Positions 14,419-45,405 of a DNA stretch of 55,252 nucleotides are shown here, piece after piece. Positions within the stretch are counted from its first letter, which is position 1, and each line of letters begins with the position of its first letter. A model generated the notes under the pieces. That model saw only the letters and a program-made list of their open reading frames with translations. It searched no databases and was not told where the DNA came from. The position numbers and the translations under genes are program-made. Origin of the DNA: Actinomycetes bacterium (GTDB lineage Bacteria; Actinomycetota; Thermoleophilia; BMS3ABIN01); the NCBI GenBank assembly GCA_021787475.1, contig JAJYLW010000015.1, forward strand, positions 1 to 55,252. The letters are read 5' to 3'.

Positions 14419-14456
14419 CCGTTGAGCATTGAAACTCTATATGATTGCAATTAGGT

Positions 14457-14939: not shown

Positions 14940-14949
14940 CTCCGCGTTC

Positions 14950-17347: not shown

Positions 17348-18655
17348 ATGCGTTCCACGCCGCCGGACGGCGGCGCGCCACCTGCCTGCAGACGCTCATT
17401 TCCGGTTAGCTCCTTGCAAGAAGCCAATTCTGAAAATATCGCTGCTCTGCCCAAACAGGCCGCCAAACCCCAGATTTCGGTGGGGAGAAAGATATTTCAC
17501 TTTCTCATCTCAATGAAGCTTGCGCTGACGCTGCTGTTTGTCATCGCCATCCTTTCCATCATTGGAACCATCCTGCCGCAGGGGCAGGATGTCTGGGCGT
17601 CGGACTGGCCCAAGAGCCCGCTCTTTGATTTCTATAACACCCTTGGCCTTTTCAACATGTACTATTCGTGGTGGTTCCTGTCGGTGCTGGGGCTGCTCGT
17701 CCTCAGCCTGTCGGCGTGCATCTTTAACCGGATGCCGACCACCGTCAAACACGTCTTCAAGCCCAGGGTTGACGTCAAGGACGCTTTTGTCGCCAACCAG
17801 CCGCAGGCCGCGTCTATTGCCGGCGGCGCCGCCGCGGCCGTCGCAGTTTTGCGCCGCCACCACTACCGGGTCAAGAAGGGCGCGACGGGGTCGGTGCTGG
17901 CGCAGAAAGGCCGCTTCTCCAGCCTCGCTTCCGTGACTTTCCATCTCAGCTTTCTCCTGATTGCCGCCGGCGCCGTCCTCGGCGGGCTGTTTGGTTTTGA
18001 CTACCAACTTACTGTTCCAAACGGGCAGATTGTCAACGTTCCCCACTCTAACATGCAGGCTGAGAGCCATGGATTTGATATGCAGTTCAGCGGCAAGGCC
18101 CTGCTCGATGACGGCCGCACGGTTGAAGTCAACTCAACCGACGCTGCTTCGCAAAGCCAGTGTCTTGGCAGCAATGGCTGGTGGGACGGCACTGAGGGCA
18201 TATGCTGGGTCAGGGGCGTCAACGACGGCGGCAACATCGTCAGCGCCTTTGATCCGCGTCCTTCCCGCTACTCTACCAGTCTGGAGCTTTTCCAGAACGG
18301 CAAATCGATCTCGAGAAAGACAATCCAGGTCAATGATCCGCTGGAGCTGAACGGCATCAATTTCTATCAGGAAAGCTTCAGCCAGGACAACCAGGGCGGC
18401 GCTGTCTCGATCCTGGAAGTGAATCACTATCCCGGCAAGACGCTGGTTTATATCGGCGCTTTCCTGATGATGGGCTCGATTACCCTTGCCCTTTATTTCC
18501 CGAACCGGCGCATCTGGCTGAAAGCGGGCAAATCGGGCGAGCTGCTGATCGGGGGGCGGACAAACCGCTCCAGGCTGGGATTCAAGCGCGACTTTGAACG
18601 CATCACCACAGAAATTAAACTGAGAACTGGGCAGGAGGCCGGAGCAGATGGTTGA
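17348..18655 (+). CDS. resB: Cytochrome c biogenesis protein ResB (Ccs1)
   Basis: A 435-residue membrane protein. The membrane segment around residue 57 (MKLALTLLFVIAILSIIGTI, then PQGQD) and WWFLSVLGLLVLSLSACI near 105 are typical of ResB. A third segment near 195, a large extracytoplasmic domain of about 180 residues (with GINFYQESF and two Cys) and a final membrane segment near 370 complete the family layout. With CcsA it forms the system II heme-transport and ligation complex that attaches heme to CxxCH motifs outside the membrane. The start ATG at 17348 has no strong ribosome binding site and a later start is possible. It overlaps ccsA by eight bases. Confidence 0.9.
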   Translation: MRSTPPDGGAPPACRRSFPVSSLQEANSENIAALPKQAAKPQISVGRKIFHFLISMKLALTLLFVIAILSIIGTILPQGQDVWASDWPKSPLFDFYNTLGLFNMYYSWWFLSVLGLLVLSLSACIFNRMPTTVKHVFKPRVDVKDAFVANQPQAASIAGGAAAAVAVLRRHHYRVKKGATGSVLAQKGRFSSLASVTFHLSFLLIAAGAVLGGLFGFDYQLTVPNGQIVNVPHSNMQAESHGFDMQFSGKALLDDGRTVEVNSTDAASQSQCLGSNGWWDGTEGICWVRGVNDGGNIVSAFDPRPSRYSTSLELFQNGKSISRKTIQVNDPLELNGINFYQESFSQDNQGGAVSILEVNHYPGKTLVYIGAFLMMGSITLALYFPNRRIWLKAGKSGELLIGGRTNRSRLGFKRDFERITTEIKLRTGQEAGADG

Positions 18656-19706
18656 GTTCGAGGAAATCTTTTTTATCGTTACCGTTCTGACGTACCTGGT
18701 GGCCAGCGGCGTTTACATCTGGCACCTGATCGCGAATAGCAAAAAAGCGGGCCAACTGGGGACGATGCTGCTGGTGCTGGGACTGTTTGCCCACACGATG
18801 GCGCTGATATTCCGCTGGGTGGATTCCGGCCACGCGCCCATGTCGAATTCGTACGAGTCGCTGGCGGTGTTCAGCTGGGGCATCGTCCTCTTCTACCTGA
18901 TCATGGAGAGAGTCTACTCGATCCGGGCCGCCGGCGCCGTGGTGGTGCCCACCGCTTTCATCATTGCCAGCATCGCTCTCGTGCTGAACAACGGGCCCGA
19001 GCCCCTGGTGCCGGCGCTACAGAGCTACTGGCTCTGGATCCATGTGTCAATTGCGATGCTTTCCTACGGTTTCTTCGCCCTCGCGTTCGGAGCGGGATTT
19101 TTCTACATTGTCCAGGAGCACCTGCTCAAAAAGCACTACCAGAACGTGGTCATCGCCTTTGTGATCATGCTCGCAGTGATTGGCCTGGCGGTTGGCCTCT
19201 GGCTGGGATTCGGCGCCTGGGCGCATCCGCTGGACGTTGTTAACCCGGTCACCCATGAGACTTCAAAGCAGTACTCGGGCACCGATATCCTCAAGATTAT
19301 CGGCGGCGGCGCCATCGGCCTCGTAATTGGCATTGCCGCCGGCTTTCTCGCCGGCAAAGGCGCCTCCAAACCCGGGTTTGCCAAGCGCCTCCCTTCCCTT
19401 GACGTCCTGGACGAAGTCAGCTACCGGGCAATCGCCTTTGGCTTCCCGATGGTGACGATCGGCATCATCACCGGCGCAATCTGGGCCGACAAGGCCTGGG
19501 GCCGTTACTGGTCCTGGGACCCCAAAGAGACCTGGTCGCTGATAACCTGGCTGTTTTACGGCGCCTACCTCCACACCAGGCTGACGTGGGGATGGCGCGG
19601 GCGCCATTCCGCCGTGATTGCCGTGCTTGGCATCGTCATCGTGCTGTTTACCTACCTTGGCGTCAATTACCTGCTGTCAGGCCTGCATTCGTACGCTACT
19701 GCATAG
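18648..19706 (+). CDS. ccsA: Cytochrome c biogenesis protein CcsA/ResC (heme handling)
   Basis: A 352-residue membrane protein with about eight segments. The tryptophan-rich WWD heme-handling motif reads WGRYWSWDPKETWS near residue 285, and histidines at LFAHTM, WIHVSI and AYLHTR are in positions expected for heme ligation. It works with ResB to ligate heme to apocytochromes on the outer face of the membrane. Its presence next to heme synthesis genes, and about 8 kb before two hexaheme cytochromes, fits a heme-to-cytochrome supply line. It overlaps resB, and the next gene starts 13 bases after it. Confidence 0.92.
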   Translation: MVEFEEIFFIVTVLTYLVASGVYIWHLIANSKKAGQLGTMLLVLGLFAHTMALIFRWVDSGHAPMSNSYESLAVFSWGIVLFYLIMERVYSIRAAGAVVVPTAFIIASIALVLNNGPEPLVPALQSYWLWIHVSIAMLSYGFFALAFGAGFFYIVQEHLLKKHYQNVVIAFVIMLAVIGLAVGLWLGFGAWAHPLDVVNPVTHETSKQYSGTDILKIIGGGAIGLVIGIAAGFLAGKGASKPGFAKRLPSLDVLDEVSYRAIAFGFPMVTIGIITGAIWADKAWGRYWSWDPKETWSLITWLFYGAYLHTRLTWGWRGRHSAVIAVLGIVIVLFTYLGVNYLLSGLHSYATA

Positions 19707-19719
19707 CAAAGAAGAGTCC

Positions 19720-21656: not shown

Positions 21657-22611
21657 CCGCGCCCGGGGCGTGGTGATTGGCACCCGCGGCAGTGAGCTGG
21701 CCATGTTTCAGGCGCGCCAGGTGGCCTGGACGCTGCAAAGAAACAGCATCGACCTCTCGGTCAAAATCAGGAAGATAACCACCTCCGGCGACAAGATTCT
21801 CGATTCCCCCCTGGCCCGGATCGGCGACAAGGGCCTCTTTGTCAAGGAGATTGAAACGGCATTACTCGAAGGCGAGATCGACCTGGCCGTCCACAGCGCT
21901 AAGGATCTGCCCACGGTCCTGCCCGACGGCCTGATAGTCGGCGCCTACGGCAGCCGCGAGGATCCCCGCGATGTTTTTGTCGGCAGCGGCCGCAGCCTGC
22001 GGGGGATTCCCGCCGGGGGCAGAGTCGGCACCAGCAGTCTCAGGCGTCGCTCGCAGTTGCTGTCGCTCAGGCCCGATCTGGAGATTGTTGACATAAGGGG
22101 GAATGTTGACACCAGGATCAGGAAGATAGCGGAGCAGGGGCTTAACGGCACCATCCTGGCGGCGGCAGGCGTCAAGAGACTTCAGAAGGAAGACCAGATC
22201 GCCTTTCATTTTTCGTTTGACGAGCTGCTGCCGGCGGTGGGGCAGGGCGTCATCGCCGTTGAGGTGCGCCGGGATGACAACCCAGTCCACCAGCTGATCG
22301 GCGTCCATAATGATGAGGATGCGGCCGCCTGCGTGCGCGCCGAGCGGGCGCTGATGCGGTGGCTGGAAGGGGGCTGCCAGGTGCCGATCGGCGCCCATGC
22401 CCGGACCCAGGGCGGCGCCCTGTTGCTGACGGCCTTCCTTGGCTCCCTGGACGGCGCCAGCGCCGTGCGCGACTCGATCGAGGGACCGGTCAGGGAGGCG
22501 GAGCGGCTGGGCGAGGCGCTGGCGGAGAGAATGCACGGCAGCGGCGGCGCCGAGATTCTGGCGGCTGTACGCGAAGCCCACGATGGCGAGGGTAGCGGCT
22601 ACTGGACGTAA
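21646..22611 (+). CDS. hemC: Porphobilinogen deaminase HemC
   Basis: A 321-residue hydroxymethylbilane synthase. GTRGSELAMFQA at the N-terminus, FVKEIETALLEGEIDLAVHS and the catalytic Asp region, the Arg-rich GTSSLRRRSQL and the cofactor-attachment Cys244 in EGGCQVPIGAH are all intact. The start ATG at 21646 overlaps the end of hemA by 11 bases and is fixed by the conserved VVIGTRGSELA; the longer frame upstream is inside hemA. It is the last gene of the plus-strand tetrapyrrole block. In many genomes hemB and hemL would follow; here the strand switches instead. Confidence 0.95.
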   Translation: MSTDRARGVVIGTRGSELAMFQARQVAWTLQRNSIDLSVKIRKITTSGDKILDSPLARIGDKGLFVKEIETALLEGEIDLAVHSAKDLPTVLPDGLIVGAYGSREDPRDVFVGSGRSLRGIPAGGRVGTSSLRRRSQLLSLRPDLEIVDIRGNVDTRIRKIAEQGLNGTILAAAGVKRLQKEDQIAFHFSFDELLPAVGQGVIAVEVRRDDNPVHQLIGVHNDEDAAACVRAERALMRWLEGGCQVPIGAHARTQGGALLLTAFLGSLDGASAVRDSIEGPVREAERLGEALAERMHGSGGAEILAAVREAHDGEGSGYWT

Positions 22612-27498: not shown

Positions 27499-29058
27499 AT
27501 GCGAGGGATAACCAACAACATGATGAAGGGTAAGTATATGCGAAAGATAGCTCTGGTAACGTTGATTGCGCTTCCGGTTGTTTTATTGCTGGCGTTTGCG
27601 ACCTCCGCATACGCACAGATCGACCCGTTAAGCCAGGTCGCCATCGGCGCGTATTCGACTAATAATCCGAACGGCGGCGTGCCTTCCGGATATTTAGACG
27701 GAAACGGCGACATCGCTCCGCACGGCAATTACAGCCTGGCGAATCCAAGCGCGGCTTATGCGCAGTATGGCAATACAAAGCCGACTGACTTCTGTCTCCA
27801 GTGCCACATGGTGCACGACGCCGAGGGCGACTACGCTCTCATGCGGGAGCAGACCGTGACGCAGACCTGCGCCACCTGCCACAACGTCTTTGGCCACAGC
27901 CCCACGGGGCAGTGGACGCGTCCCCGCCTGGTGAACTGGAACGAGGATCCTAACGAGGTCCAGCCGACTACCGCCATCGTGGGCGCCTACAAGAACGAGA
28001 CGGCAAATAACGGCGCCGGCCCGCAAAGCGAGCACGGCCTCGGAGTCATTCTGGATGGCAACGGCAATGTTGTTAACGGAGCCGAAGGCCGGGCCGGCGC
28101 GGATGACATCGCCGGCGAGTGCGATACCGACGCTTCCCGCGGCGGCACTTCCGACGGCGGCAACCCGACCAACTGCACCAACCTGCTGAAGGTGATCTCG
28201 CCGGCCAGCTACGCTGCCGGACTGACCAACTTCAGCGTTAACGCCGGTGGCCCAATCTACAGTGGCCAGGAGTCGAACCAGTTTGCGGCCACCAACGGCC
28301 TCTACTGCGCTTCCTGCCACTCGGTGCACGGCTCGGTCCAGGCCAACCCGAACACGATGACCTCTTACAAGAGCTGTTACATTGACAGCGAGGGCGTCTA
28401 CCGGGCGGTTGGGGCCGATACCCCGGCGCCGGCAGGCGCGACGCTGACCAACTGTCCGACGTCATCGCTGGGCAGCTTCGGCAAGCAGCTGGTGACTACG
28501 CAGGGGCTGAACAGCAGCACGACCGGCTACCCACATGTGGTGTTCCCGGACCGGCTGCTCTCCGACATGCCGAACCACTCGCTGTATCAGCCGATGAACA
28601 ACGAGGCGACGTCAAGTCATAACGGTGACGTTCAGAGCGCGACTTGGGACGGCACGAACAATACGTTCAAATGGCAGCCGCGTCCGGCGGAGACATACAA
28701 CGAGTTCTGCATGACCTGCCACACGATGAAGAACGACTCGGCGGCGGCAGATGTGGAGAACGCCAACGGCACCAACAGCGCCGATCCGTCTCAGCCGCAC
28801 AACCATCCGCCTCTCTGCACCTCCTGCCACGGAAACCCGGGCAATGGATCGTTCGGCCAACAGGGTAACGGCAATGGTTACGTCAACGACTTCCCGCACA
28901 GCAGTGGCAACGAGAAGTTCCTGACGCAAAACTCGGACAAGCTCTGTCTGGGTTGCCATTCGCCCGCAAACGGTCAGCCTGATGAAGCTGGTCAGTACGG
29001 TAACACCAATTCCTATGGTGGCGCCTACGACAACGGCGCAGGCAACCACCTGCCGTAA
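27499..29058 (+). CDS. Secreted hexaheme c-type cytochrome
   Basis: A 519-residue protein with a signal peptide (KIALVTLIALPVVLLLAFAT, then SAYA-Q cleavage) and six CxxCH heme sites: CLQCH, CATCH, CASCH, CMTCH, CTSCH and CLGCH. CxxCHxxH spacing at CLQCHMVH and CASCHSVH marks the doubled-CxxCH family and suggests bis-His ligation. The same six sites, in the same order and with shared linkers (YSLxRExTVTQ type, IYSGQ, SFGxQL, YNEFC, DFPHxS), recur at the C-terminus of the giant protein at 31633-35754. ATG at 27499 follows aaaggaggtg at slightly long spacing; ATG at 27538 (MRKIALVTL) follows gaaggg and gives a minimal signal peptide. It is the first gene of a set with a lipoprotein, a TPR protein and an NHL protein. 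NHL genes beside nanowire-type cytochromes are known in Geobacter, so a role in extracellular electron transfer is a reasonable inference. Confidence 0.88.
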   Translation: MRGITNNMMKGKYMRKIALVTLIALPVVLLLAFATSAYAQIDPLSQVAIGAYSTNNPNGGVPSGYLDGNGDIAPHGNYSLANPSAAYAQYGNTKPTDFCLQCHMVHDAEGDYALMREQTVTQTCATCHNVFGHSPTGQWTRPRLVNWNEDPNEVQPTTAIVGAYKNETANNGAGPQSEHGLGVILDGNGNVVNGAEGRAGADDIAGECDTDASRGGTSDGGNPTNCTNLLKVISPASYAAGLTNFSVNAGGPIYSGQESNQFAATNGLYCASCHSVHGSVQANPNTMTSYKSCYIDSEGVYRAVGADTPAPAGATLTNCPTSSLGSFGKQLVTTQGLNSSTTGYPHVVFPDRLLSDMPNHSLYQPMNNEATSSHNGDVQSATWDGTNNTFKWQPRPAETYNEFCMTCHTMKNDSAAADVENANGTNSADPSQPHNHPPLCTSCHGNPGNGSFGQQGNGNGYVNDFPHSSGNEKFLTQNSDKLCLGCHSPANGQPDEAGQYGNTNSYGGAYDNGAGNHLP

Positions 29059-29113: not shown

Positions 29114-29140
29114 GGGGAGGCATCCACCGGATGCCTCCCC
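29114..29140 (+). promoter_or_regulatory. 12-bp perfect hairpin over the lipoprotein start site
   Basis: ggggaggcatcc, loop acc, ggatgcctcccc forms a perfect 12-bp stem. Its left arm is the ribosome binding site (ggggagg) and its right arm contains the ATG at 29131, so folding would hide both. No T run follows, so it is not a usual terminator. It lies 55 bases after the cytochrome stop. It could lower lipoprotein yield relative to the cytochrome or protect the upstream message. Confidence 0.6.
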
Positions 29141-29727
29141 AAACTCGGGAAGCGGTTTTTCCCGATGAAAAAGAAGAGCGATTTTCCACGAAAAAAAAGC
29201 TGACAGCAGTTTTTCTCCTCGGTCTTGCCTCCCTGGTAATTGCCTCGTGCGGCTCCGGCGCCCAGGCAGGCACCACCGGCACCACCCAGAATTTTAGCCA
29301 GCTGCACTCGAAGACTCCCGATCAGCAGAAGCAGATTCTTAATGACGTACATAATGACCTTACTTTAATCATGGGCATTACCAACAATCCGGCCGGCTTC
29401 CCCCAGGCCCTGACAGGGGCGGCGCTGGACAGCCAGAAGAAGCAGTTTGACCAGGATATGGCCCAGGGCCGCTACCGCAAGCGGGATTACCGCAACATGA
29501 CGTTAAAGTTTGAAGGCTACGATGATCCCATTGCCGAGATGTCCCTGGAGTTCGACGACTACGGTTATTACGTCGACGCCAAAACCGGCCATCAGCTGAG
29601 CCAGCCTTCACGCCAGCACCAGAAATTTGATTTGGCCGTAAAAGAGGACGGCGGCCATTGGAAGATTGAGCGCCTGCTGGCTCCCAGCAATTCCCGCACG
29701 CCCACCAGCCTTAACGGGGGCAGTTAA
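29131..29727 (+). CDS. Lipoprotein of the cytochrome cluster, unknown function
   Basis: A 198-residue protein. After a polar start, KKKLTAVFLLGLASLVIASC is a lipoprotein signal with lipobox VIASC, so the mature protein would begin at Cys40 and be lipid-anchored outside the membrane. The mature part is soluble, with charged helices then beta-like segments (TLKFEGYDDPIAEMSLEF, YGYYVDAKTG) and an end GGHWKIERLL reminiscent of NTF2-like folds. ATG at 29131 has a ribosome binding site but both are in a strong hairpin; no other standard start precedes the signal. It lies between the cytochrome and TPR genes and is probably part of their complex or assembly. Confidence 0.65.
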   Translation: MPPQTREAVFPDEKEERFSTKKKLTAVFLLGLASLVIASCGSGAQAGTTGTTQNFSQLHSKTPDQQKQILNDVHNDLTLIMGITNNPAGFPQALTGAALDSQKKQFDQDMAQGRYRKRDYRNMTLKFEGYDDPIAEMSLEFDDYGYYVDAKTGHQLSQPSRQHQKFDLAVKEDGGHWKIERLLAPSNSRTPTSLNGGS

Positions 29728-29756: not shown

Positions 29757-30383
29757 TTGTCAAGGTTAATGAATATTGTTATAGCACTGGTCATCATCGG
29801 CATCCTGGCGGGCGGCGGCTACCTTGGCTACCTCTACATCCACCCCCCCCAGACCAAGAGCTCCATCGATCTGGACCTGGAGAGCTGGCAGGGCCGCGTC
29901 AACCAGGACCCCGGCAACGCCCTTTACCGCGCCAACCTGGGCGTCACCCTGATCCAGAAAGGCCAGTTCAACAAGGCGATCCAGGAGCTAAAAGCCGCCC
30001 TCAATATAGATCCGACCGCCTTTACATACATGGATTCCCTCGGCGACGCCTACCGTCTCGCCGGCCAGCCGGACAATGCCGTTAACGAGTACAAGCAGGC
30101 GCTGGCAAAATATCCACCGGGGAACAAGTATACCGACGCGTACAAGATTGCCGATGTTTTGTTCAATGACAAGCATGACATAAACGGGGCGCTCAATTAC
30201 GTGCAGCAGTCGATTGCCGATAACGGCAACATCTGGAACAGCCTCTACCTTTTCGGCCAGATTCTGGAAAAGCAGGGGAAACTGGCGCAGGCCCGGCAGG
30301 AATATCTGAAAGCGGCGGAATTTAACGGCAGTGACCCGGGCGTGCAGGCGGCCCTGAAGCGTGTGGAAGCGGCTAAAGTCTAA
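29757..30383 (+). CDS. Membrane-anchored TPR-repeat protein
   Basis: A 208-residue protein. Residues 5-28 are one membrane segment (NIVIALVIIGILAGGGYLGY), followed by about four tetratricopeptide repeats; the best are NALYRANLGVTLIQKGQFN and AFTYMDSLGDAYRLAGQPD. Start TTG at 29757 is chosen because gaggag lies seven bases upstream; ATG at 29769 is an alternative. TPR domains bind other proteins, and in this operon it may hold cytochrome subunits during assembly outside the membrane. The NHL gene follows after 21 bases. Confidence 0.8.
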   Translation: MSRLMNIVIALVIIGILAGGGYLGYLYIHPPQTKSSIDLDLESWQGRVNQDPGNALYRANLGVTLIQKGQFNKAIQELKAALNIDPTAFTYMDSLGDAYRLAGQPDNAVNEYKQALAKYPPGNKYTDAYKIADVLFNDKHDINGALNYVQQSIADNGNIWNSLYLFGQILEKQGKLAQARQEYLKAAEFNGSDPGVQAALKRVEAAKV

Positions 30384-30404: not shown

Positions 30405-31457
30405 ATGGAGTTTGTAGAGACCTTAAAAGATCACAAGAAAAAACTGATCGTGATCGCCATCCTGCTGATCATTTTGGTGGTGGTGCTGCTGCTGCTGATG
30501 AGAAAGAAAGCCGAGTCGCAGATCGTCACTTCGGGTTTTACCTTCATTGGGTCTATTAACGGACTTCATTCTCCGCTGGGCGTGGCCACTGACCATTATG
30601 AGAACATCTATGTCAGTGACACCGGCGCGGGCCAGGTTACCGTTTATAACCGCGACGGCGGCAAGAAATTCGATATCAACAATACCACCGACGAGACGGG
30701 CAAGCCGCTCAAATTCAACGGCCCCTATGGCATCGCTGTTGACGACGTCCACAACAAGATTTACGTCTGCGATTACACCTGGCGCGGTGTGCGCGTCCTG
30801 GACAGGGATGGCCATTTCCTCTACAACCTGCCGAAGGATCCCAAAACCGACCTTAAAAACAACCCGAACATAGGTTTCGAGCCTTTCGGCGTTGCCGTGG
30901 CCGGCGACCGGGTCTTCGTCTCTGGACAGGACGGCCTCTTTATCTTTGACTCCGACGGCAATTTTATCGAGCACCTGGGCACGTATGGCACCGGCAAGGG
31001 CCAGTTCCAGTTTGCCGACGCCATTGCCGTCGACCCCAAGACAAAAAACATATTTATGACCGACACCCTTAACCGGCGCATCACCTGCCTGACCATGGAA
31101 GGCAAGCTGCGCTGGATTCTGGGAAGCCCGGACAAGAACGGCCAGGTCACCAGCCCGCTGCAACTGCCGCGCGGCATCGCGGTTGGTCCGGACGGCCTCG
31201 TTTACATTAGCGACACCTTTGCCCAAAAAATCATTGTGCTTGACCAGAATGGAAACCTGAAATCAGAGTTTGGCAACCGGGGGGTCCAGGACGCGGAGAT
31301 CAATTTCCCTGAAGGGATCGCCATTACCTCAACCCGGCGCATGTACATTGACGACCGCGAGAACAACCGCGTGCAGATCTGGCAACTGGCCAATCCGCTG
31401 CCGGCCGCCCCCATTAAGGACGTAACCGACTTTGCCAAGGATTTAAAGAAATACTAA
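30405..31457 (+). CDS. Membrane-anchored NHL-repeat beta-propeller protein
   Basis: A 350-residue protein with an uncleaved membrane anchor at residues 15-33 (LIVIAILLIILVVVLLLLM) and about six NHL-type repeats beyond it, for example SPLGVATDHYENIYVSDTG, GPYGIAVDDVHNKIYVCDY, LPRGIAVGPDGLVYISDTF and FPEGIAITSTRRMYIDD. A six-bladed propeller outside the cell is expected. NHL proteins next to multiheme cytochromes are known in metal-reducing bacteria and may aid export or filament assembly. It ends the first cytochrome operon; hairpins follow. Confidence 0.83.
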   Translation: MEFVETLKDHKKKLIVIAILLIILVVVLLLLMRKKAESQIVTSGFTFIGSINGLHSPLGVATDHYENIYVSDTGAGQVTVYNRDGGKKFDINNTTDETGKPLKFNGPYGIAVDDVHNKIYVCDYTWRGVRVLDRDGHFLYNLPKDPKTDLKNNPNIGFEPFGVAVAGDRVFVSGQDGLFIFDSDGNFIEHLGTYGTGKGQFQFADAIAVDPKTKNIFMTDTLNRRITCLTMEGKLRWILGSPDKNGQVTSPLQLPRGIAVGPDGLVYISDTFAQKIIVLDQNGNLKSEFGNRGVQDAEINFPEGIAITSTRRMYIDDRENNRVQIWQLANPLPAAPIKDVTDFAKDLKKY

Positions 31458-31524
31458 GGAGCCGATTGCGTCAAGCCAACGGGAGGGCGGCTCCGGAGCC
31501 GTCCTCCCGGCGCATCTTGATAAG

Positions 31525-31562
31525 CCCTGCAAATTGCGCTATTGAGCAGGGGATGTTTTTTT
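31525..31562 (+). terminator. Terminator-like hairpins after the NHL gene
   Basis: CCCTGC at 31525-31530 pairs with GCAGGG at 31546-31551, and after four bases a run of seven T follows. Just upstream, 31481-31510 forms a longer GC-rich stem (gggagggcggctc against gagccgtcctccc). Together they probably end the cytochrome operon. Confidence 0.55.
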
Positions 31563-31598
31563 GATTTATTGTGCGATAAATGTTATAATTTTCACAAT
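31561..31598 (+). promoter_or_regulatory. Promoter of the giant beta-helix/Ig/cytochrome gene, with inverted repeat
   Basis: TTGATT at 31561-31566 and TATAAT at 31584-31589 have a 17-base spacer, giving a start near 31596 and a leader of about 37 bases. ATTGTG at 31568-31573 and CACAAT at 31593-31598 form an inverted repeat across the -10 box, a possible repressor site. The T run of the preceding terminator overlaps the -35 box. Confidence 0.65.
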
Positions 31599-31632: not shown

Positions 31633-34600
31633 ATGCTGGTCGTGAGGCACATCCGGAAGGCAGGTTATCTGAAGGTTGCTTTTGCCGGGCTGGCGTTTGC
31701 GCTGGTAATCTCGCTGGGGTTGTTCTTCGCCAATCGGGGCTCGGCCTCCACGACAATAGGCATCAGCAACAATTCCACCGGTGGTGACTGTACCACGGTC
31801 GGCGCCTGGGACGCCGCCACCGGGACCTGCACCCTGACCACCGACCTGACCTTCCAGGGAAATAACGGCTTCCAGATCTCGTCCAGCGGCATCACCCTGG
31901 ATGGAAACGGCCATTCCATCGCCGGCAGCAATCAGGCCGACGGCGTTGTCATCCAGGGCGTCACGGGCGTCACCGTCAAGAACCTGACCGTCCAGAGCTT
32001 TGACACCGGGGTTTACCTGAACGGGGCCAGCAGCGTCACGCTCACCGGCAACACCCTTGCCGGCAATGTTTCCTCCGGCGTCAACATTGTCTCCTCAAAC
32101 AGCAACACCGTCTACCACAACAATTTTATCGACAACGGCGTCCAGGCGCAGGCGAGCGGCTCCGGCAACGTCTTTAACCTGGCGTCGCCCCAGGGCGGCA
32201 ACTACTGGAGCGACTGGACTTCGCCCGACGCCGACGGCGACGGCTTTGTTGACATTCCCTACGCTTTTAGCGGCGGCCAGGATAACCTGCCCTTTACAAC
32301 ACAGAACGGCTGGGTTGACACGACGCCGCCGGTGGTGACAAACATTCAACCGTCCGCCAGCGTCGTCGTCAGCTCGGTCATCGTCAGCGCCAGCTACAAT
32401 GACTCCGGCCTCCACGCCAGCGGCGTCGATCCCACCTCTGTCACCGTTACCCTGGATGGAAACATGCTGCCCAATTGCAGCGCCACCGCCACCGACGTTC
32501 ACTGCCCGGCAAACAACCTCGGCGTCGGCCTGCACACGATCACGGTGACGGTAAGCGACATGGTCGGCAACTCCAGCGGCGCCACCAGCGGCGGCTTCAG
32601 CGTCAACGACATTCAAGCCCCCACCGTTTCCGCCGTTGCGCCGTCCGGGGCAATCACCACCAGCACCGCCACCATCTCCGCCAGTTACGTGGACCCGGCG
32701 CCCGCCAGCGGAATTAGTACATCCTCGGTTAACCTCAGCCTGGACGGTCAGGCGCTCAGCGGTTGCATGGTCACAACAACAAATGTAAGCTGCAATGTCT
32801 ACGGCCTCACAGTCGGGCCGCATGCAATCGGCGGCTCTGTCACCGACAACGCCGGCAACACCAGCTCAATTAACGGCAGCTTTAACGTCGGAGACGCGAC
32901 GCCGCCGGTGATAAGCTCCGTCCAGCCCTCGGGCAGCATCTCCACCAGCTCCGCCGCCATCAGCGTTTATTACAGCGACCCGGCGCCGGCCAGCGGGGTC
33001 AACACATCATCGGTTTCAGTGACGTTGGACGGCAGCCCGGTGAGCGGCTGCACGGTCGCGGCGTCGCACGCCAACTGCCCGGTTTACAATCTTGCCGTCG
33101 GCAGCCACGTCATCGGCGGCTTGGTATCGGATAATGCCGGCAACCAGACGGCCATTAGCGGCGGCTTCAGCGTCGTTGACAACGCCAAGCCGGTGATAAC
33201 CGCCGTGACGCCAACAGGCGATATTTATTCTTCCGCCGCCGGCATCACGGTAAATTATTACGATCCGGCGCCGGCCAGCGGCATCAATACCGCTGCCGTT
33301 GCCGTCAGCGTTGACGGGAAGGCCCTCAGCGGCTGCACCGTCACGGCTCAAAGCGCCAGCTGCAACGTCTCCGGCCTGGCGCTGGGCACGCATGCCATCT
33401 CCGGATCGGTGGCAGACAACGCCAGCAATACGACCACGATCTCAGGCAGCTTCAGCATCGTTGACAATATCAGGCCGGTCGCGACCAGCGTCGCTCCCGC
33501 CGGTCCCAACCATTACGGCACCTCTGCGGCCATCAGTGTGTACTATACGGATCCCGTCGGATCCGGCCCCAGCCCGGCGCCGGCCAGCGGCATCAACGCC
33601 TCATCGGTATCGGTCACCCTTGATGGAACGGCGCTCAGCGGCTGCACCGTCACCGCCACCAGCGCCAACTGCAATGTTTCCAACCTGGTGCAGGGCATGC
33701 ACTTGATCGGCGGACACGTTTCTGACAACGCCGGCAACGCCAGCATCATTTACGGCGCTTTTTTCATCGGCCGCTCCGGCGACACCACGCCGCCGCAGAT
33801 AACAATCGCCAGCATGCCGCCCGCCACGGCGGCGATTGACGTCTACTATTCGGACAGTGAAGCGGGCGGCGCCGGGATTGACACAAACTCGGTTGTGGTT
33901 ACGATCGACGGCGGCATCATCAGCTGCAGCGTTGGCGCCAGCCAGGCAAGCTGTCCGGTGGCACAGCAGTCACTGGGCTTGCATGAAGTTGACGCATACG
34001 CGGCCGACAATGCCGGCAACTGGCAAAAGGCGGCTGGCGCCTTTAACGTCACCGACAATGTGGCGCCGGTGATCAGCAACCTCCAGCCGGCGGGAACAAT
34101 CGGCGGCTCCAGCACGGTCATCTCGGCCGGGTTTAACGACCCGGCGCCCTCCAGCGGCATCGCCGCGGTATCGGTCTACATGGACGGCGCCGCCCTCAGC
34201 GCCTGCAATATTGACAAGAGCGCCGGGACGGTCAGCTGCCCAATTCAGGGGCTTACGCTTGGTTCTTCCCATAATTTCACCGTCAACGTCAGCGACAACG
34301 CCAGCAACGCCAGCACCGCCTCCGGCTCCTTTACCGTCGAGGACCTGACGACGCCGGTGATCACCGGCATCTCCCCGGCAGGGGCGGTTAACCCGGGAAA
34401 CATCGTCGTCAGCGCCGGTTATTACGATCCCAACGATCCGGCTCACATCTCCAGCGGCATTGACGTATCGTCAGTGGCTGTGCAGTTGGACGGCAAGCTG
34501 CTGCTTGGCTGCCATGTGACGACATCCAGCGTCGCCTGTCCCGCATACGATCTGGCGCCGGGCACGTCGCCACATGCAATCGGCGTTACGGTCAAGGACG

Positions 34601-35754
34601 ACGCCGGCAACTCCGCCAGCATGAGCGGCAGCTTCACCGTACAGGACACGCTGCCGCCCGTTATCACCAGCATCAGCCCGTCCGGAACGGTCAGCCAGGC
34701 GTCCATACCTTCTCCCTGGAACGTGGAGATTGCCTATGAGGACGCCGGCTCGGGGGTTAATGCCTCAAGCATGGTGATAAACCTGGACGGCCAGAAGGTG
34801 GCCGGCTGCACTATCAGCGCCAGCGCCGCCAACTGCCCGATCCCGGCCGCCAACGAGGGAATGGGATTGCACTCCATCAGCGGTTACCTGAGCGACAACG
34901 CCGGCAACCAGGCCCAGATCGTCGGCAACTTCATGATCACGCCGGCGCTGAGCACTGTCTCGCCTCACGGCGGCTACAGCTCCACCACAAATGACTGCAA
35001 CCTCTGTCATGAGATGCACGGGGCCGACAGCGATTACAGTCTTGTCCGGGAGTCAACGGTGACCCAGGTTTGCGGCACCTGTCACGGACTCTTCGGCGCC
35101 CCGGTGGGCAACAATACCTGGACGCCGCCGCCGCCGTCATTCAGCAGCAACAGCAGCCTCGGCCAGGCGACCGTCTCCCAGTATGCCGTCTATACCGTTG
35201 ACATGTCGAAGATGACGCCGAGCCAGATGGACGCCGTTCCCGGGCACAGCCTCGGGGTAATGTACGGCGGCACGGTCGTTCGCAACAGCAACAGCATTCC
35301 CGACGGCAGCGGCCAGCTGCAGGTCATCTCTGACAGCAACTCCATTTACAGCGGCCAGCCGGCAACCGATTTTGAGGCGCTCCAGGGGTTGAGCTGCGTC
35401 TCCTGCCATACCCCGCATGGATCAACTGATATAACCCAGAGTTTCGGCAACCAGCTGACCGACAACGGTTTCAAGCCGGTGACGGCGAGCATGATGCTGA
35501 CGAATCGGCCGAATCATATCAATACGCCGGTGAAAAGCTATAACGAGTTCTGTGAAGCTTGCCATAACCTGGTAGGAACCGCCAGCGACAGCAACCCGAT
35601 TCACAAGCACCTGCCTCTGTGCGTCTCCTGCCATGGCGACCCCAGCAACGGTGCTTCCCGGGACTTTCCCCACACCAGCCCCAACGCCGATCTGCTTATC
35701 ACAGATACGGCCAACCTGTGTTCGCAGTGCCACGACCCGGCAACGCTGCTTTAA
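31633..35754 (+). CDS. Giant surface protein: NosD-like beta-helix, nine Ig-like repeats, C-terminal hexaheme cytochrome
   Basis: A 1373-residue exported protein. Residues 14-36 are a signal or anchor segment (FAGLAFALVISLGLFFA). Residues about 37-226 are a NosD-like right-handed beta-helix (GITLDGNGHSIAG, then GGNYWSDWTSPDADGDG). Residues about 227-1105 are nine Ig-like repeats of about 95 residues, most starting PPVI-type and ending SDNAGN...GSFSV; most have two cysteines about a dozen residues apart (SGC...C), suggesting one disulfide per domain. Residues about 1106-1373 carry six heme sites (CNLCH, CGTCH, CVSCH, CEACH, CVSCH, CSQCH), collinear with the separate cytochrome at 27499-29058. 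No LPXTG or C-terminal membrane anchor is seen. The layout reads as a long stalk holding a redox tip away from the cell. ATG at 31633 follows ctaaggg. Confidence 0.85.
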   Translation: MLVVRHIRKAGYLKVAFAGLAFALVISLGLFFANRGSASTTIGISNNSTGGDCTTVGAWDAATGTCTLTTDLTFQGNNGFQISSSGITLDGNGHSIAGSNQADGVVIQGVTGVTVKNLTVQSFDTGVYLNGASSVTLTGNTLAGNVSSGVNIVSSNSNTVYHNNFIDNGVQAQASGSGNVFNLASPQGGNYWSDWTSPDADGDGFVDIPYAFSGGQDNLPFTTQNGWVDTTPPVVTNIQPSASVVVSSVIVSASYNDSGLHASGVDPTSVTVTLDGNMLPNCSATATDVHCPANNLGVGLHTITVTVSDMVGNSSGATSGGFSVNDIQAPTVSAVAPSGAITTSTATISASYVDPAPASGISTSSVNLSLDGQALSGCMVTTTNVSCNVYGLTVGPHAIGGSVTDNAGNTSSINGSFNVGDATPPVISSVQPSGSISTSSAAISVYYSDPAPASGVNTSSVSVTLDGSPVSGCTVAASHANCPVYNLAVGSHVIGGLVSDNAGNQTAISGGFSVVDNAKPVITAVTPTGDIYSSAAGITVNYYDPAPASGINTAAVAVSVDGKALSGCTVTAQSASCNVSGLALGTHAISGSVADNASNTTTISGSFSIVDNIRPVATSVAPAGPNHYGTSAAISVYYTDPVGSGPSPAPASGINASSVSVTLDGTALSGCTVTATSANCNVSNLVQGMHLIGGHVSDNAGNASIIYGAFFIGRSGDTTPPQITIASMPPATAAIDVYYSDSEAGGAGIDTNSVVVTIDGGIISCSVGASQASCPVAQQSLGLHEVDAYAADNAGNWQKAAGAFNVTDNVAPVISNLQPAGTIGGSSTVISAGFNDPAPSSGIAAVSVYMDGAALSACNIDKSAGTVSCPIQGLTLGSSHNFTVNVSDNASNASTASGSFTVEDLTTPVITGISPAGAVNPGNIVVSAGYYDPNDPAHISSGIDVSSVAVQLDGKLLLGCHVTTSSVACPAYDLAPGTSPHAIGVTVKDDAGNSASMSGSFTVQDTLPPVITSISPSGTVSQASIPSPWNVEIAYEDAGSGVNASSMVINLDGQKVAGCTISASAANCPIPAANEGMGLHSISGYLSDNAGNQAQIVGNFMITPALSTVSPHGGYSSTTNDCNLCHEMHGADSDYSLVRESTVTQVCGTCHGLFGAPVGNNTWTPPPPSFSSNSSLGQATVSQYAVYTVDMSKMTPSQMDAVPGHSLGVMYGGTVVRNSNSIPDGSGQLQVISDSNSIYSGQPATDFEALQGLSCVSCHTPHGSTDITQSFGNQLTDNGFKPVTASMMLTNRPNHINTPVKSYNEFCEACHNLVGTASDSNPIHKHLPLCVSCHGDPSNGASRDFPHTSPNADLLITDTANLCSQCHDPATLL

Positions 35755-36212: not shown

Positions 36213-38612
36213 ATGAGAGGTCTAAATACTTGCCTGATCCGTCTGAAAAAAAGCCCTGGCGGGAAAATTTTTTTGGCGATTGGCCTAATCATCGCAGCCA
36301 CACTGGGTTTGCACATCAGCTCCGCGGCGGCCGGCGGCGGAGCCATCAGCTCGAGCACTACTTTTAATATCAGCAATGCTGTCGGCGGCGGGGATTGCAC
36401 TGCCCGCGGCATCGGCACCTGGAACCAAAGCACCCTCACCTGCACGCTGACAAGCGACGTGACCATGACCGCCGCGGTTGACGGCATTCAAATAGACAGC
36501 GACGGCGTCACCCTCGACGGCAACGGCCATACGCTGACGGGAAACGGCTCCGGTGAGTCGGGAGTTTTGGGAGTTTATCTCTCGGGCCGGACGCGGGTAA
36601 CGGTCAGGAATCTGAACGTTACCAATTTTAACATTGGCATCGGCCTTGATTCATCCAGCAGCAACGTCATTTCCGGCAACACCGCCAATTCAAACGGGGC
36701 GGGCATCGACCTGGAAAACACGAGCGATAATAATACAATTTCGGCCAACACCGCTGACTCGAATTATACGGGAATCAACCTTGCCAACTCCTCCAGCAAC
36801 AACTTCGTTTCTGGCAATACGGCCGATTTTAATGTCGGAAGTATTCTTAGCGCCGGAATTCTGGTTTCCTCTTCCAGTAACACCATTTCCGGGAACACCG
36901 CCAATTCGAACGGGATCGTCGGGATCGAACTTTTTAGCTCCACAAGCAACAATAACGTTAACGTTACGGGCAACACCACCAATTCAAATTTCGAAGCCGG
37001 TATCGGGCTTTTCGATTTCAACAATAATGAGATTTTGAACAATTCAACTATGTTGAACGCAATAGGAATTGCTGCCACTGACGCCAGCAGCAATACATTT
37101 TCGGGCAACACGATCAGCGCAGGTAACAATGGTATTGTTCTTGACACAAGCTCAACGGGCTCCAACAACAACATCATCTACCGCAACAACTTCATCGGCA
37201 ACACGACCCAGGCGAGCGTGGAAGCCGGCAGCACCGGCAACGTCTTTAACCTGCCGCTTCCCGCCGGCGGCAACTACTGGAGCAACTGGACTTCTCCCGA
37301 CTCTGACAATGACGGCATCGTGGATAGCCCTTACGTTTTTTCCGGCGGCCAGGACAATCTTCCCTGGACCTCGCAGAACGGCTGGCTTAATGATTATTTC
37401 TGGACCTGGTATGATAACCAGAGCCCCGGGGCCAAAGACTGGGTGCTGCTCTCCAACCCCGCCGGCTCGGGCAGCCTCTCCTTTCGCCTTAAAATAGCAG
37501 GCTCTTCCAAAGCGCTGCCAGACTCGGGCCTGGTCGGCGCCGGGAAAACCCTCTACGCCCAGTACCCGGGACTGATGGGCGGGCCGGTGGACGCAACCAA
37601 GGCGCTTCCCTCTGGCGCGGCCGTAACCTCGCAGCGAACCTTATGGGCGGGAAACTCACTGGAGGAAGTCCTGGGCCAGCGCACAGACAAGCTTTCCAAT
37701 GATTATTTCTGGACCTGGTACGATAACCAGAGCTCCGGCTATACAAACTGGATTTTAATCGCTAATACGGGTATGGACCACAACGGCAATACCCAGGGAG
37801 CAGTCACGGCGACTGTTAAGATCGGCGGTTCGGCGGTCTGGAGCGGCAGCATCCCTCCGGGAGGAAGGGTAACCCCCACCTTTCCCGGCAGGATGGGCGG
37901 CCCGGTTGAGGTGACATCCTCAGGCGGAGACGTGATGGCTTCCCAGAGGGTTCTTTCCAACTACGGCTCAGCCTTTAACGAGGTGCCGGGCGTCCCGGCC
38001 TCCTCACTGGCTGACACCTACCTCTGGACCTGGTACGACAACCAGAGCCCCGGAGCGATAAACTGGGTGCTTGTGGCAAATCCGCCCGGAGCCCCGGCGC
38101 CAATCTATTACAACATCTTTATCGGCAGCACTCTGGTAAAAAGCGGCGGGCCGATCGCCCCCGGCCATGACGTCACCCCTGCCTTCCCCGGCAGGATGGG
38201 AGGACCGGTTAAAGTTGTCACGTTCAACAATCCCGCCCATCCGGGAGTGAGCCCCGCGCCTTCTATCTGCTCCCAGCGCTCGGTCTTCGGGCCTTCGTTT
38301 GAGGAAGTGCCGGGCTCTTCCGTCTCCTCACTTGCCGGAAGCTACAACTGGACTTGGTACGATAACCAAAGCCCCGGTATGAGCAACTGGGTGCTTGTGG
38401 CAAATCCGGGCACAGCTACGGTAAACAATGTCACCGTCAAGATAGCCGGAAAGACGGTTTGGGGGCCGGCCAGCATCGGCTCCGGCGCCATGGTTACGCC
38501 AACCTTTCCAGGCAAGATGGGCGGCCCCGTCCAGGTGAGCGCCGGCGGTAACGTGATTGCCTCCCAACGGGTGCTTTACAACGGCTACTTCAACGAGGTG
38601 CTGGGGGAGTAG
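36213..38612 (+). CDS. Secreted NosD-like beta-helix protein with four WTWYDNQSPG-type repeats
   Basis: A 799-residue protein. Residues 17-42 form a signal segment (KIFLAIGLIIAATLGLHISS). Residues about 50-390 are a NosD-like beta-helix with many SSNNxISGNTANSN-type turns and the ending GGNYWSNWTSPDSDNDGI; this head is clearly related to residues 37-226 of the giant protein at 31633. Residues about 393-799 are four repeats of about 100 residues, each with WTWYDNQS, NWVLVANP, FPGRMGGPV and SQRVL motifs. It contains no CxxCH. Tyr/Trp-rich repeats suggest binding of sugars or surfaces, but that is inference. ATG at 36213 is preceded by ggaaaggaaag. No wall anchor is seen. It is 146 bases past a terminator, so it has its own promoter or depends on readthrough. 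Confidence 0.75.
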   Translation: MRGLNTCLIRLKKSPGGKIFLAIGLIIAATLGLHISSAAAGGGAISSSTTFNISNAVGGGDCTARGIGTWNQSTLTCTLTSDVTMTAAVDGIQIDSDGVTLDGNGHTLTGNGSGESGVLGVYLSGRTRVTVRNLNVTNFNIGIGLDSSSSNVISGNTANSNGAGIDLENTSDNNTISANTADSNYTGINLANSSSNNFVSGNTADFNVGSILSAGILVSSSSNTISGNTANSNGIVGIELFSSTSNNNVNVTGNTTNSNFEAGIGLFDFNNNEILNNSTMLNAIGIAATDASSNTFSGNTISAGNNGIVLDTSSTGSNNNIIYRNNFIGNTTQASVEAGSTGNVFNLPLPAGGNYWSNWTSPDSDNDGIVDSPYVFSGGQDNLPWTSQNGWLNDYFWTWYDNQSPGAKDWVLLSNPAGSGSLSFRLKIAGSSKALPDSGLVGAGKTLYAQYPGLMGGPVDATKALPSGAAVTSQRTLWAGNSLEEVLGQRTDKLSNDYFWTWYDNQSSGYTNWILIANTGMDHNGNTQGAVTATVKIGGSAVWSGSIPPGGRVTPTFPGRMGGPVEVTSSGGDVMASQRVLSNYGSAFNEVPGVPASSLADTYLWTWYDNQSPGAINWVLVANPPGAPAPIYYNIFIGSTLVKSGGPIAPGHDVTPAFPGRMGGPVKVVTFNNPAHPGVSPAPSICSQRSVFGPSFEEVPGSSVSSLAGSYNWTWYDNQSPGMSNWVLVANPGTATVNNVTVKIAGKTVWGPASIGSGAMVTPTFPGKMGGPVQVSAGGNVIASQRVLYNGYFNEVLGE

Positions 38613-38800: not shown

Positions 38801-41104
38801 ATGTTGGCATTGGCTTCTTTTTTTCAACAGCAGCTTGACTTTGTCTTATTCATTTACGGGCTGGCGTTAATCCTGCTGGCGGCCGTCTGCCTGCACATGC
38901 GGACCTCGCCGCGCCGCCTGCCCTGGCTCTGGCTGGGCTTGTTCGGGCTTACCGGCGGCATCCGGCAATGGGCCAGCCTTGTCTCAATTGTCAATGACGG
39001 CGCATCATTCAGGCTGTTACGCCTGGTTTTGCTGGCCGCCTCGTATTTTTTCCTGCTGGAGTTTGGCCGCCGGGGCCTGAAACGAATACTTGGCAAAGGA
39101 CCCGGCCCCTGGATTTATCTGCCGCTCGGGGCGGCGGCTTTTTCGGGGGTCTTCGGCGGAGGACAGTCCGGAGCAGGCGCCACCATAAGTTATACTCTCG
39201 GCATTCCGGGCGGCATTCTGACCGCCCTTGTTTTGCTTTACGCGGCCCGAACGGCGAAGAACGGCGGCAGCCTGGAACGGCTCGCGGCACTGGCTTTGGG
39301 GGCGTACTCGGTTTTTGCCGGGCTGGTTGTGCCCGGCGCTTCCTTTGTCCCGGCCTCAGTGCTAAACGAGGCCAATTTCACTTCCAGATTTGGCGTTCCG
39401 GTTCAATTGCTGCTGGGTTTGCTGACGCTTCTTTTCACTGCATCAATCTGGTCGTACGGCCAGCGCACTCGCCCCCAGCTGGAATACATTGTCAGGCGCA
39501 AGGTCAGCGGCCCGGTGCTGGCAATCATGTTTGTGACCGTGCTTGCCGCAGGATGGATTTCCACGGAGCTCTTTGGCGACAACCATATACAGATGATGAA
39601 GAGCGATCTGACCAATCAGACCGCCGCCATCTCGGCGGCGATTGACGAGCATATCCAGAAAATAATTGAGACCCAGGCAAACCCGACAAATCCGGAATAC
39701 AGGAGCCAGGTGGCCGAGCTTAAGGAGCATCTGGGCGATATCCAGAAGGCGAATCCGCAGATGATCGGCCTGATGATATTCGAAAGCGCTGCGGGGCCGC
39801 GGCTGCTGATGTCCAGCGGGCAGGCTTTCCCTCTGGCTGGCGGGCGAGCACAAGCCGGCGAGGCGGAATCTCAGGGCCCGGCTTCAGCATTCTCTGGCCG
39901 TGAGCCGGTCACAGGTGGCTCCTATCATTCCGGCTCCCGGTCTTATCTGGTCAGTTACACACCCATCAACGATTCTGCCGGCAAGACAATCGCGGTTGTT
40001 GCAGTTGAATTCGACTCTTCACATTTTGACTCCATGATCGCCGTCTACCGGCTGGTGCCCATCAGCATCACGCTGTTTGTCCTTCTGATCATGATCGGCG
40101 CCTACGTGACCAGACAAAATCTGGCCGAGAGGGCGGAGATACTGGAGAACGCCAAGAAAAGGTTCTCCGATCTGACCCACAAGGCGATCATGGAGCGCCG
40201 CTGGGAGGTCGGCTTTGAGGACGATTTTGTGCCCACCTGCTGGGAAGTTAAAAAGTGCGACAAGACCAATTGCCCCGTCTATGGGAAAGAACACGCGCGC
40301 TGCTGGCTGATCGCCGGCACCTACTGCCGCGGCCAGGTACAGGGTCAGTTTGCCCAGAAACTTGGCGACTGTTCACAATGCGATATCTACAGGGAGGCAA
40401 TGACGCATGGGCCTGTGAGCGAGATTGGCGAGAACTTCAACAGTCTGATGTGGTCGCTTCGGGAAAAGGAGGACCTGCTCAAAGTCACCAACGATGAGCT
40501 GGAAAAACATAACCGGGAGTTGAAGGAGCTACACCGCCTTGCCGAAGAGCGAGCCGATACCGATGGACTGACCGGCCTCAAGAACCACAGTTATTTCCAG
40601 CAGCGCCTGATGGAGGAGACCGACCGGGCCCAGCGCTACGGCCGCCCCCTGTCACTTATCATGCTGGACCTCGACAAATTTAAAGAGGTGAACGATTGCT
40701 TTGGTCACCAGAAAGGAGACCATCTTCTCCAACTGGTTGGCAAGATCCTGTCGGGCGAGGTGCGCGACGTTGACCTGGCCGCCAGATATGGCGGGGAAGA
40801 ATTCATGATCATCATGCCGGAGATCAAAGGCGAGGAAGCTGTCAAAGCTGCCGAACGCCTGCGCGGCAAAGTGGAGCATCTTTACCGGGAAGTGGACCTG
40901 CCGGAGCACCAGACCGCGGCCAGCTTTGGCGTCGCCGATTTCCCCGCCTGCGCCCGGGACAGCAGCAGCCTGATCGCCGCCGCCGACGGCGCACTGCTCT
41001 TTGCCAAACGCTCGGGCCGCAACCGGGTTGTCTATCTAGATGAAGAGTTGAAGAAGGCGATCAACTGGGATGAGGACAAGAAGCCTGGCAGTTACGCGGC
41101 TTGA
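38801..41104 (+). CDS. Membrane diguanylate cyclase with Cache-like sensor and Cys-rich two-CW domain
   Basis: A 767-residue signalling protein. Residues 1-225 hold about seven membrane segments. Another segment near 237-255, an extracytoplasmic Cache-like region near 256-405 and a segment near 412-432 follow. Residues about 470-530 are Cys-rich (CWEVKKCDKTNCPVYGKE, then CWLIAGTYC and CSQC), like the two-CW motif of many anaerobe sensors, which may hold a metal, cluster or heme. After a coiled coil, the GGDEF domain (about 590-755) has an intact GGEEF active site and the RDVD I-site five residues before it, so it should make c-di-GMP with product inhibition. It stands next to the surface-protein genes, and c-di-GMP often controls surface attachment. 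ATG at 38801 follows ggtgag. Confidence 0.82.
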   Translation: MLALASFFQQQLDFVLFIYGLALILLAAVCLHMRTSPRRLPWLWLGLFGLTGGIRQWASLVSIVNDGASFRLLRLVLLAASYFFLLEFGRRGLKRILGKGPGPWIYLPLGAAAFSGVFGGGQSGAGATISYTLGIPGGILTALVLLYAARTAKNGGSLERLAALALGAYSVFAGLVVPGASFVPASVLNEANFTSRFGVPVQLLLGLLTLLFTASIWSYGQRTRPQLEYIVRRKVSGPVLAIMFVTVLAAGWISTELFGDNHIQMMKSDLTNQTAAISAAIDEHIQKIIETQANPTNPEYRSQVAELKEHLGDIQKANPQMIGLMIFESAAGPRLLMSSGQAFPLAGGRAQAGEAESQGPASAFSGREPVTGGSYHSGSRSYLVSYTPINDSAGKTIAVVAVEFDSSHFDSMIAVYRLVPISITLFVLLIMIGAYVTRQNLAERAEILENAKKRFSDLTHKAIMERRWEVGFEDDFVPTCWEVKKCDKTNCPVYGKEHARCWLIAGTYCRGQVQGQFAQKLGDCSQCDIYREAMTHGPVSEIGENFNSLMWSLREKEDLLKVTNDELEKHNRELKELHRLAEERADTDGLTGLKNHSYFQQRLMEETDRAQRYGRPLSLIMLDLDKFKEVNDCFGHQKGDHLLQLVGKILSGEVRDVDLAARYGGEEFMIIMPEIKGEEAVKAAERLRGKVEHLYREVDLPEHQTAASFGVADFPACARDSSSLIAAADGALLFAKRSGRNRVVYLDEELKKAINWDEDKKPGSYAA

Positions 41105-43756: not shown

Positions 43757-43779
43757 TTGGAGTCCAGGGCGGCAAACTT

Positions 43780-45186: not shown

Positions 45187-45405
45187 AAAATCCCGCTCCT
45201 CTCGTTCCGATTCTACTCTACTGGCAAGCAGCCAATCTGTAAAGGAACGGGCGCTTGCCCGCCGTATCACAATTAAAGTAAGATATGCGCAGAGGGCCAC
45301 CAGAGTGGCGTCTCGGCGGGAAACGGTTTCCCGCGGTGGTCCTGATATGAAAACACCCGCATTTACATTGATAAATTTGCCTTCGCGCTCATGCCGGAGG
45401 TCAAG

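What the first reader, a model, noticed from the sequence alone, without database searches (positions are those of the whole stretch)
31633..35754. A hexaheme cytochrome fused to a nine-domain Ig-like stalk and a beta-helix head
One 1373-residue exported protein joins a NosD-like beta-helix, nine Ig-like domains each with a probable disulfide, and a C-terminal domain with six CxxCH sites. I know of separate adhesins and separate cytochromes, but not of this three-part fusion. The stalk would be tens of nanometres long and could carry electrons or the redox tip across a thick wall to a mineral or partner cell. The domain reading is direct; the role is inference.
Basis: partly seen in the sequence, partly recalled or inferred. 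Interest (0 to 1): 0.92.

Follow-up and report, generated by a model that had tools for sequence, protein, structure and literature searches.

The report
Hexaheme cytochrome on a surface-protein stalk
An uncultured actinobacterium carries a gene that joins a long rod-like surface protein to a six-heme, electron-carrying cytochrome; the join is real, conserved and has parallels that evolved separately, and it is probably a way of placing redox chemistry outside the cell, of a kind already proposed for another Gram-positive bacterium.

Summary
ORF 31633-35754 (+) encodes 1373 aa: signal peptide, short right-handed beta-helix (res ~40-228), nine tandem Ig-like domains (229-1102, one Cys pair each) and a C-terminal domain with six CxxCH. 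The same co-linear gene (82-83% identity, purifying selection) occurs in two independently assembled genomes of the genus, so it is not an assembly join. The cytochrome part is a relative (42-50%) of a stand-alone secreted hexaheme cytochrome that sits in a conserved cytochrome/heme-maturation operon across the family; the beta-helix/Ig part belongs to large surface-type proteins without hemes. The fusion arose inside this genus. Another actinobacterial family separately fuses the same hexaheme module to other stalks (up to 1826 aa), and an adhesin-cytochrome fusion (CFE_2239) is published for Carboxydocella. Best reading: a secreted, stalk-mounted cytochrome for extracellular electron transfer. 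The stalk has no hemes and cannot conduct; anchoring, orientation and partner are not shown. Profile similarity to OmcS/OmcE nanowire cytochromes vanishes when CxxCH is masked, so a nanowire role is speculation. New variant of a known kind.

The parts
31633..35754 (+). fusion gene, 1373 aa: beta-helix + nine Ig-like domains + hexaheme cytochrome
   Evidence: orthologues 82-83% over full length
31633..31749 (+). signal peptide / N-terminal hydrophobic segment (res 1-39)
   Evidence: read from sequence; 82-88% conserved; cleavage inferred
31750..32316 (+). right-handed beta-helix with NosD-type end (res 40-228)
   Evidence: Pfam NosD 2.4e-14, Beta_helix 1e-9; AF2 pLDDT ~89 for the coils, low for res ~176-227
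32317..34938 (+). nine tandem Ig-like domains, one Cys pair each (res 229-1102)
   Evidence: boundaries and identities; Ig1-Ig4 modelled as beta-sandwiches; Foldseek titin / RTX adhesin
34939..35751 (+). C-terminal hexaheme cytochrome domain (res 1103-1373); CxxCH codons start at 34996, 35071, 35395, 35551, 35620, 35719
   Evidence: six CxxCH invariant in 31 homologues, six distal His invariant or at least 90% conserved
27499..29058 (+). stand-alone hexaheme paralogue, 519 aa
29131..29727 (+). conserved small lipoprotein-like protein of the operon (198 aa), no known family
29757..30383 (+). TPR protein of the operon
30405..31457 (+). NHL-repeat beta-propeller protein with N-terminal membrane segment
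31480..31509 (+). 13-bp G+C-rich hairpin between NHL gene and fusion gene (possible terminator, no T-run)
   Evidence: z -2.7
31561..31589 (+). promoter-like site TTGATT-17-TATAAT before the fusion gene
   Evidence: second hexamer kept in G003, altered in G001
17348..18655 (+). ResB, cytochrome c maturation system II
18648..19706 (+). CcsA-type cytochrome c assembly protein

Best explanation
A secreted surface protein in which a beta-helix/Ig-repeat scaffold carries, as its C-terminal module, a bis-histidine hexaheme c-type cytochrome related to the one in the neighbouring conserved cytochrome operon. The rod-like stalk (nine Ig domains, roughly 35-40 nm if straight) and the beta-helix tether or dock the cytochrome away from the membrane, in the wall or matrix or on a mineral or partner, and the cytochrome acts as a terminal or relay electron carrier in extracellular electron transfer, fed by membrane cytochromes (for example the NapC/NirT-type protein) and perhaps the stand-alone hexaheme. 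Shown: architecture, conservation, origin by fusion, operon context, heme-attachment genes. Inferred: heme loading, surface location, role in electron transfer, stalk length. Not known: which end is at the cell and what the beta-helix binds.
For: Six CxxCH and six distal His conserved in 31 homologues. Lowest dN/dS in the cytochrome part (0.08-0.09), fixed number of Ig domains, all 32 Cys kept. Stand-alone secreted hexaheme (42-50% identity) in most of the family, in a conserved operon hexaheme-lipoprotein-pentaheme-TPR-NHL-ResB-CcsA-hemA/hemC. ResB, CcsA and heme-synthesis genes in this window. NapC/NirT heptaheme and two more multihemes in the genome. Heme-free beta-helix/Ig relatives with up to 17 Ig repeats and other C-termini, i.e. 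a surface-protein scaffold with exchangeable ends. Parallel stalk-hexaheme fusions beside a stand-alone hexaheme in family f29. Published adhesin-cytochrome fusion restricted to the Fe(III)-reducing strain of Carboxydocella (PMC6085454).
Against: No experiment. No anchor motif, so it may be released rather than cell-bound. Beta-helix and Ig modules are not adhesins by themselves. AF2 of the cytochrome domain failed (pLDDT 36), so its fold is unverified. The organism is uncultured, with no physiology.
Confidence: 0.62

Rival explanations
1. Adhesive cap or anchor of a cytochrome filament: the stand-alone hexaheme polymerises in the manner of OmcS, and the fused copy ends or roots the wire, with the Ig stalk as adhesin or anchor.
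For: Stand-alone paralogue and fused copy co-occur here and in family f29; OmcS (2.5e-12) and OmcE (7e-9) are among the best solved relatives of the widest profile; OmcS and OmcE use an inter-subunit His-heme bond (PMC12954529, PMC12307469).
Against: With CxxCH masked there is no hit at all, so similarity is not shown beyond heme motifs; 6r2q scores nearly as well; nothing tested here shows polymerisation.
Confidence: 0.12
2. Ordinary wall or periplasm-like electron carrier: the stalk only tethers the hexaheme inside the envelope as a short-range relay, without contact with minerals or partners.
For: Family-wide operon next to heme maturation genes, modest heme number.
Against: A ~35-nm stalk is more than seems needed inside a wall; the scaffold family is otherwise of very large surface-type proteins.
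Confidence: 0.18
3. Redox-sensing or matrix protein in which the hemes serve signalling or detoxification rather than respiration.
For: A diguanylate cyclase gene lies downstream (38801-41104) and a relative of it follows the fusion gene in G003 and G001.
Against: Bis-His multiheme modules are usually electron carriers; no signalling domain in the protein; no functional link to the cyclase shown.
Confidence: 0.05
4. Chimeric assembly or annotation artefact.
For: None found.
Against: Same gene and same junction in three assemblies at 80-90% identity.
Confidence: 0.01

Closest known systems
CFE_2239 of Carboxydocella thermautotrophica 019 (adhesin-cytochrome fusion, PMC6085454)
   Same: Secreted 1486-aa protein joining a heme-free, adhesin-like part (first 500 residues) to a multiheme part, in a Gram-positive bacterium, near a hexaheme cytochrome and cytochrome c maturation genes; its authors propose a terminal Fe(III) reductase born by gene fusion.
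   Different: 17 hemes, not 6; adhesin part without recognised domains, not beta-helix + nine Ig; class Clostridia. Sequence comparison not done here.
Stalk-hexaheme fusions of actinobacterial family f29
   Same: C-terminal hexaheme of the same family behind a long heme-free stalk; stand-alone hexaheme in the same genomes.
   Different: No beta-helix; FN3 or unassigned repeats; separate origin; in G354 next to two 12-heme membrane cytochromes.
Stand-alone hexaheme of family f1 (e.g. G009, 283 aa)
   Same: 42-50% identical, same six CxxCH and distal His.
   Different: Secreted alone, first cytochrome gene of its operon.
ANME S-layer multiheme cytochromes MHC-A/B (PMC9012536)
   Same: Multiheme modules fused to a structural module of the cell envelope.
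   Different: Archaea; S-layer domain and membrane helix; many more hemes.
OmcS / OmcE cytochrome filaments of Geobacter
   Same: OmcS is also hexaheme; among the nearest solved sequences by profile.
   Different: No stalk; relation not shown beyond heme motifs.

Membership tests
Multiheme c-type cytochrome (paired CxxCH) | CxxCH motifs above the family cut-off | tested here: met
   PF09699 56.6 bits vs 20.6; TIGR01905 46.8 vs 25.2
Multiheme c-type cytochrome (paired CxxCH) | one conserved distal His per heme | tested here: met
   six non-CxxCH His invariant or at least 90% conserved across 31 homologues
Multiheme c-type cytochrome (paired CxxCH) | cytochrome c maturation system in the genome | tested here: met
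   ResB and CcsA at 17348-19706
Multiheme c-type cytochrome (paired CxxCH) | covalently bound heme | not testable with these tools
   needs heme stain or mass spectrometry
NosD copper maturase | score over the NosD maturase cut-off | tested here: not met
   TIGR04247 56 bits vs 300; only the beta-helix family PF05048 is met, 48 vs 23.6
Bacterial Ig-like tandem stalk | tandem Ig-fold sandwiches | tested here: met
   Big_13 over cut-off for the whole protein; AF2 and Foldseek for Ig1-Ig4; single domains scanned alone stay below cut-off
OmcS/OmcE-type cytochrome nanowire | sequence relation beyond CxxCH | tested here: not met
   hits are lost after masking CxxCH (fewer rows, so less sensitive)
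OmcS/OmcE-type cytochrome nanowire | polymerisation with inter-subunit heme ligation | not testable with these tools
   AF2 model of the domain unusable
Adhesin-cytochrome fusion (CFE_2239 type) | heme-free surface-protein part plus multiheme part in one secreted chain | tested here: met
Adhesin-cytochrome fusion (CFE_2239 type) | homologous cytochrome part | not tested
   CFE_2239 sequence not fetched

The most novel reading that the evidence does not exclude
Actinobacteria repeatedly make a two-part system: a stand-alone hexaheme that forms the conductive element and a stalked copy that docks or caps it, i.e. an adhesive tip or root for a cytochrome wire.
Probability: 0.1. Interest if true: 0.85.

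Novelty: new variant of a known kind. Interest (0 to 1): 0.55.

Why it matters
How cells without a porin-cytochrome conduit place redox proteins outside a thick wall is poorly known. This gene, its two orthologues and the separate stalk-hexaheme fusions in another family suggest that actinobacteria repeatedly solved it by mounting one kind of hexaheme module on rod-like surface proteins. It gives a compact, testable set of proteins in lineages where almost nothing is characterised.

Tried and rejected
AF2 of the cytochrome domain (A2, 20 rows): pLDDT 36, discarded. Nanowire membership by profile: OmcS 2.5e-12 with A3, but nothing after CxxCH masking, so dropped as a family claim. Assembly-join explanation rejected by independent assemblies. 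NosD maturase reading rejected by cut-off. Plasmid collection: only one weak Ig match. Paper searches for Ig-like + multiheme + adhesin or fusion found nothing; the precedent came through the Carboxydocella paper.

Full report
OBSERVATION. The ORF at 31633-35754 (+) is 1373 aa without stop. It has 32 cysteines: two in the beta-helix cap (53, 66), nine pairs in nine repeats, twelve in six CxxCH motifs between 1122 and 1367. Shuffled versions contain 0.013 CxxCH on average. Pfam assigns NosD/Beta_helix, Big_13, Paired_CXXCH_1 and Cytochrom_c3_2 above cut-off. Repeats start at 229, 326, 421, 516, 611, 717, 808, 904 and 1005 and end at 1102; pairwise identity 33-62%. AF2 of residues 40-610 (mean pLDDT 82.1, pTM 0.39) gives a beta-helix of about five coils and four sandwich domains; residues ~176-227 are unreliable. 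Foldseek's best solved matches are titin I65-I70 (5.5e-15) and a tetra-tandem RTX-adhesin repeat (1e-11). These fit an extended rod, but the low pTM means that the angles between domains, and so the exact length, are not predicted. The figure of 35-40 nm assumes ~4 nm per Ig domain (general knowledge).

NOT AN ARTEFACT, AND UNDER SELECTION. All nine Ig domains are in register and all 32 Cys conserved; dN/dS is 0.08-0.09 (cytochrome), 0.16-0.19 (stalk), 0.14-0.20 (beta-helix). The constant repeat number is notable for a repeat protein.

ORIGIN. The cytochrome domain is 42-50% identical to a stand-alone secreted hexaheme found in most genomes of the family. There it belongs to a conserved cluster: hexaheme - small lipoprotein - pentaheme - TPR - NHL - ResB - CcsA - hemA/hemC (not every gene is seen on every contig). 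In the window the order is 519-aa hexaheme (27499) - lipoprotein (29131) - TPR (29757) - NHL (30405) - fusion (31633), with ResB, CcsA, hemA, hemC, a HemD/methylase fusion and two radical-SAM proteins at 9763-22611. The pentaheme gene is missing in the three fusion genomes (only the region shared with hexahemes matches) and was also not found in G011 and G014; it is present in congener G004, which keeps the plain arrangement. So the fusion most likely arose within the genus. G002 has the 519-aa paralogue cut by a contig end, so its status is open; G005 has neither. In the tree the fusion domains form one clade (100/100), as do the 519-aa paralogues, both near G007, G011 and G016 hexahemes (several branches are long). 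The N-terminal 1100 residues are about 40-55% identical to heme-free proteins of the family with up to 17 Ig repeats and other C-termini. So the protein looks like a domain swap: a surface-protein scaffold received a hexaheme end. A 13-bp hairpin (31480-31509) and a promoter-like site (31561-31589) suggest transcription apart from the NHL gene; both are pattern evidence only.

PARALLELS. In samples of 299 genomes of the class and 396 of the phylum no further NosD-Ig-hexaheme protein was seen. But in family f29 (all 11 genomes have the hexaheme) the hexaheme also sits at the C-terminus of heme-free stalks with FN3 or unassigned repeats: L227 3467-6007 (847 aa), L244 (1678 aa), L245 (1826 aa), and L225, L226, L246, L247, whose frames are cut at their start by the end of the contig or stretch. 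In L227 a stand-alone hexaheme lies 1.2 kb upstream and two 12-heme cytochromes lie on the other side. G100 (same class) has TPR + Ig repeats + at least 12 hemes (L224). [quoted passage not shown] a homologue was reported in Anaerosomatales, which include an Fe(III) reducer (PMC9686372).

MECHANISM. Shown: architecture, conservation, gene context. From established knowledge: CxxCH with conserved distal His gives bis-His c-type hemes; ResB/CcsA attach heme. Six distal His are conserved (domain positions 13, 30, 106, 163, 227, 248; position 1 = residue 1100), one per heme; a seventh (196) is conserved only in the family. Inferred: export, heme loading, electron transfer outside the membrane. The genome has a NapC/NirT-type heptaheme that could draw electrons from quinol. 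The stalk has no hemes, so electrons cannot travel along it; it can only position the cytochrome or let it swing between contacts. The chain lacks an LPXTG motif or C-terminal helix (read), so the base may be an uncleaved N-terminal helix, a wall-binding beta-helix, or there may be none.

NANOWIRE QUESTION. With a wide profile OmcS is the best solved match (2.5e-12), followed by 6r2q (5.9e-10) and OmcE (7e-9). After replacing C, C and H of every CxxCH by X in ten members there is no match at all up to E 10 (fewer rows, so less sensitive). I therefore do not file it with nanowire cytochromes.

VERDICT. Observation right, interpretation partly right, novelty lower than claimed: a new domain combination within an adhesin-cytochrome fusion theme that has a published example. 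The repeated, apparently separate origin of stalked hexahemes in actinobacteria is the most interesting result.

Noticed in passing
window 29131-29727; homologues in G001, G004, G007, G009, G010, G011, G013, G016: Small lipoprotein-like protein conserved beside the hexaheme, with motif KRDY...EFDD..YYVD..TG; no Pfam or NCBIfam match. Candidate new family tied to cytochrome assembly or function.
   Followed up: partly
window 27499-29058: 519-aa hexaheme paralogue with large insertions between hemes compared with ~283-aa relatives; found in the genomes that have the fusion.
   Followed up: partly
G000, G001, G003 against the rest of the family: The pentaheme cytochrome between lipoprotein and TPR genes is missing in the three fusion genomes, as if the stalked hexaheme had taken its place.
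   Followed up: partly
window 36213-38612: Next gene is another beta-helix protein (799 aa) ending in four repeats with WTWYDNQSPG..NWVL.ANP; the same repeats end other surface proteins of this genome (L241, L242). No such gene lies between the fusion and the cyclase gene in G003 and G001.
   Followed up: no
L244 249-5282, L245 547-6024, L227 3467-6007: Large stalk-hexaheme proteins (1678, 1826 and 847 aa) in actinobacterial family f29.
   Followed up: partly
L224 1134-5282: TPR + Ig-repeat + at least 12-heme protein in G100 (same class), cut by the contig end.
   Followed up: partly
window 9763-22611: Heme-synthesis block (HemD/methylase, two radical-SAM/SPASM proteins, hemA, hemC) with ResB and CcsA; the radical-SAM pair suggests the siroheme route to heme.
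   Followed up: no
window 41816-45906: SelB and SelA genes: selenocysteine machinery.
   Followed up: no
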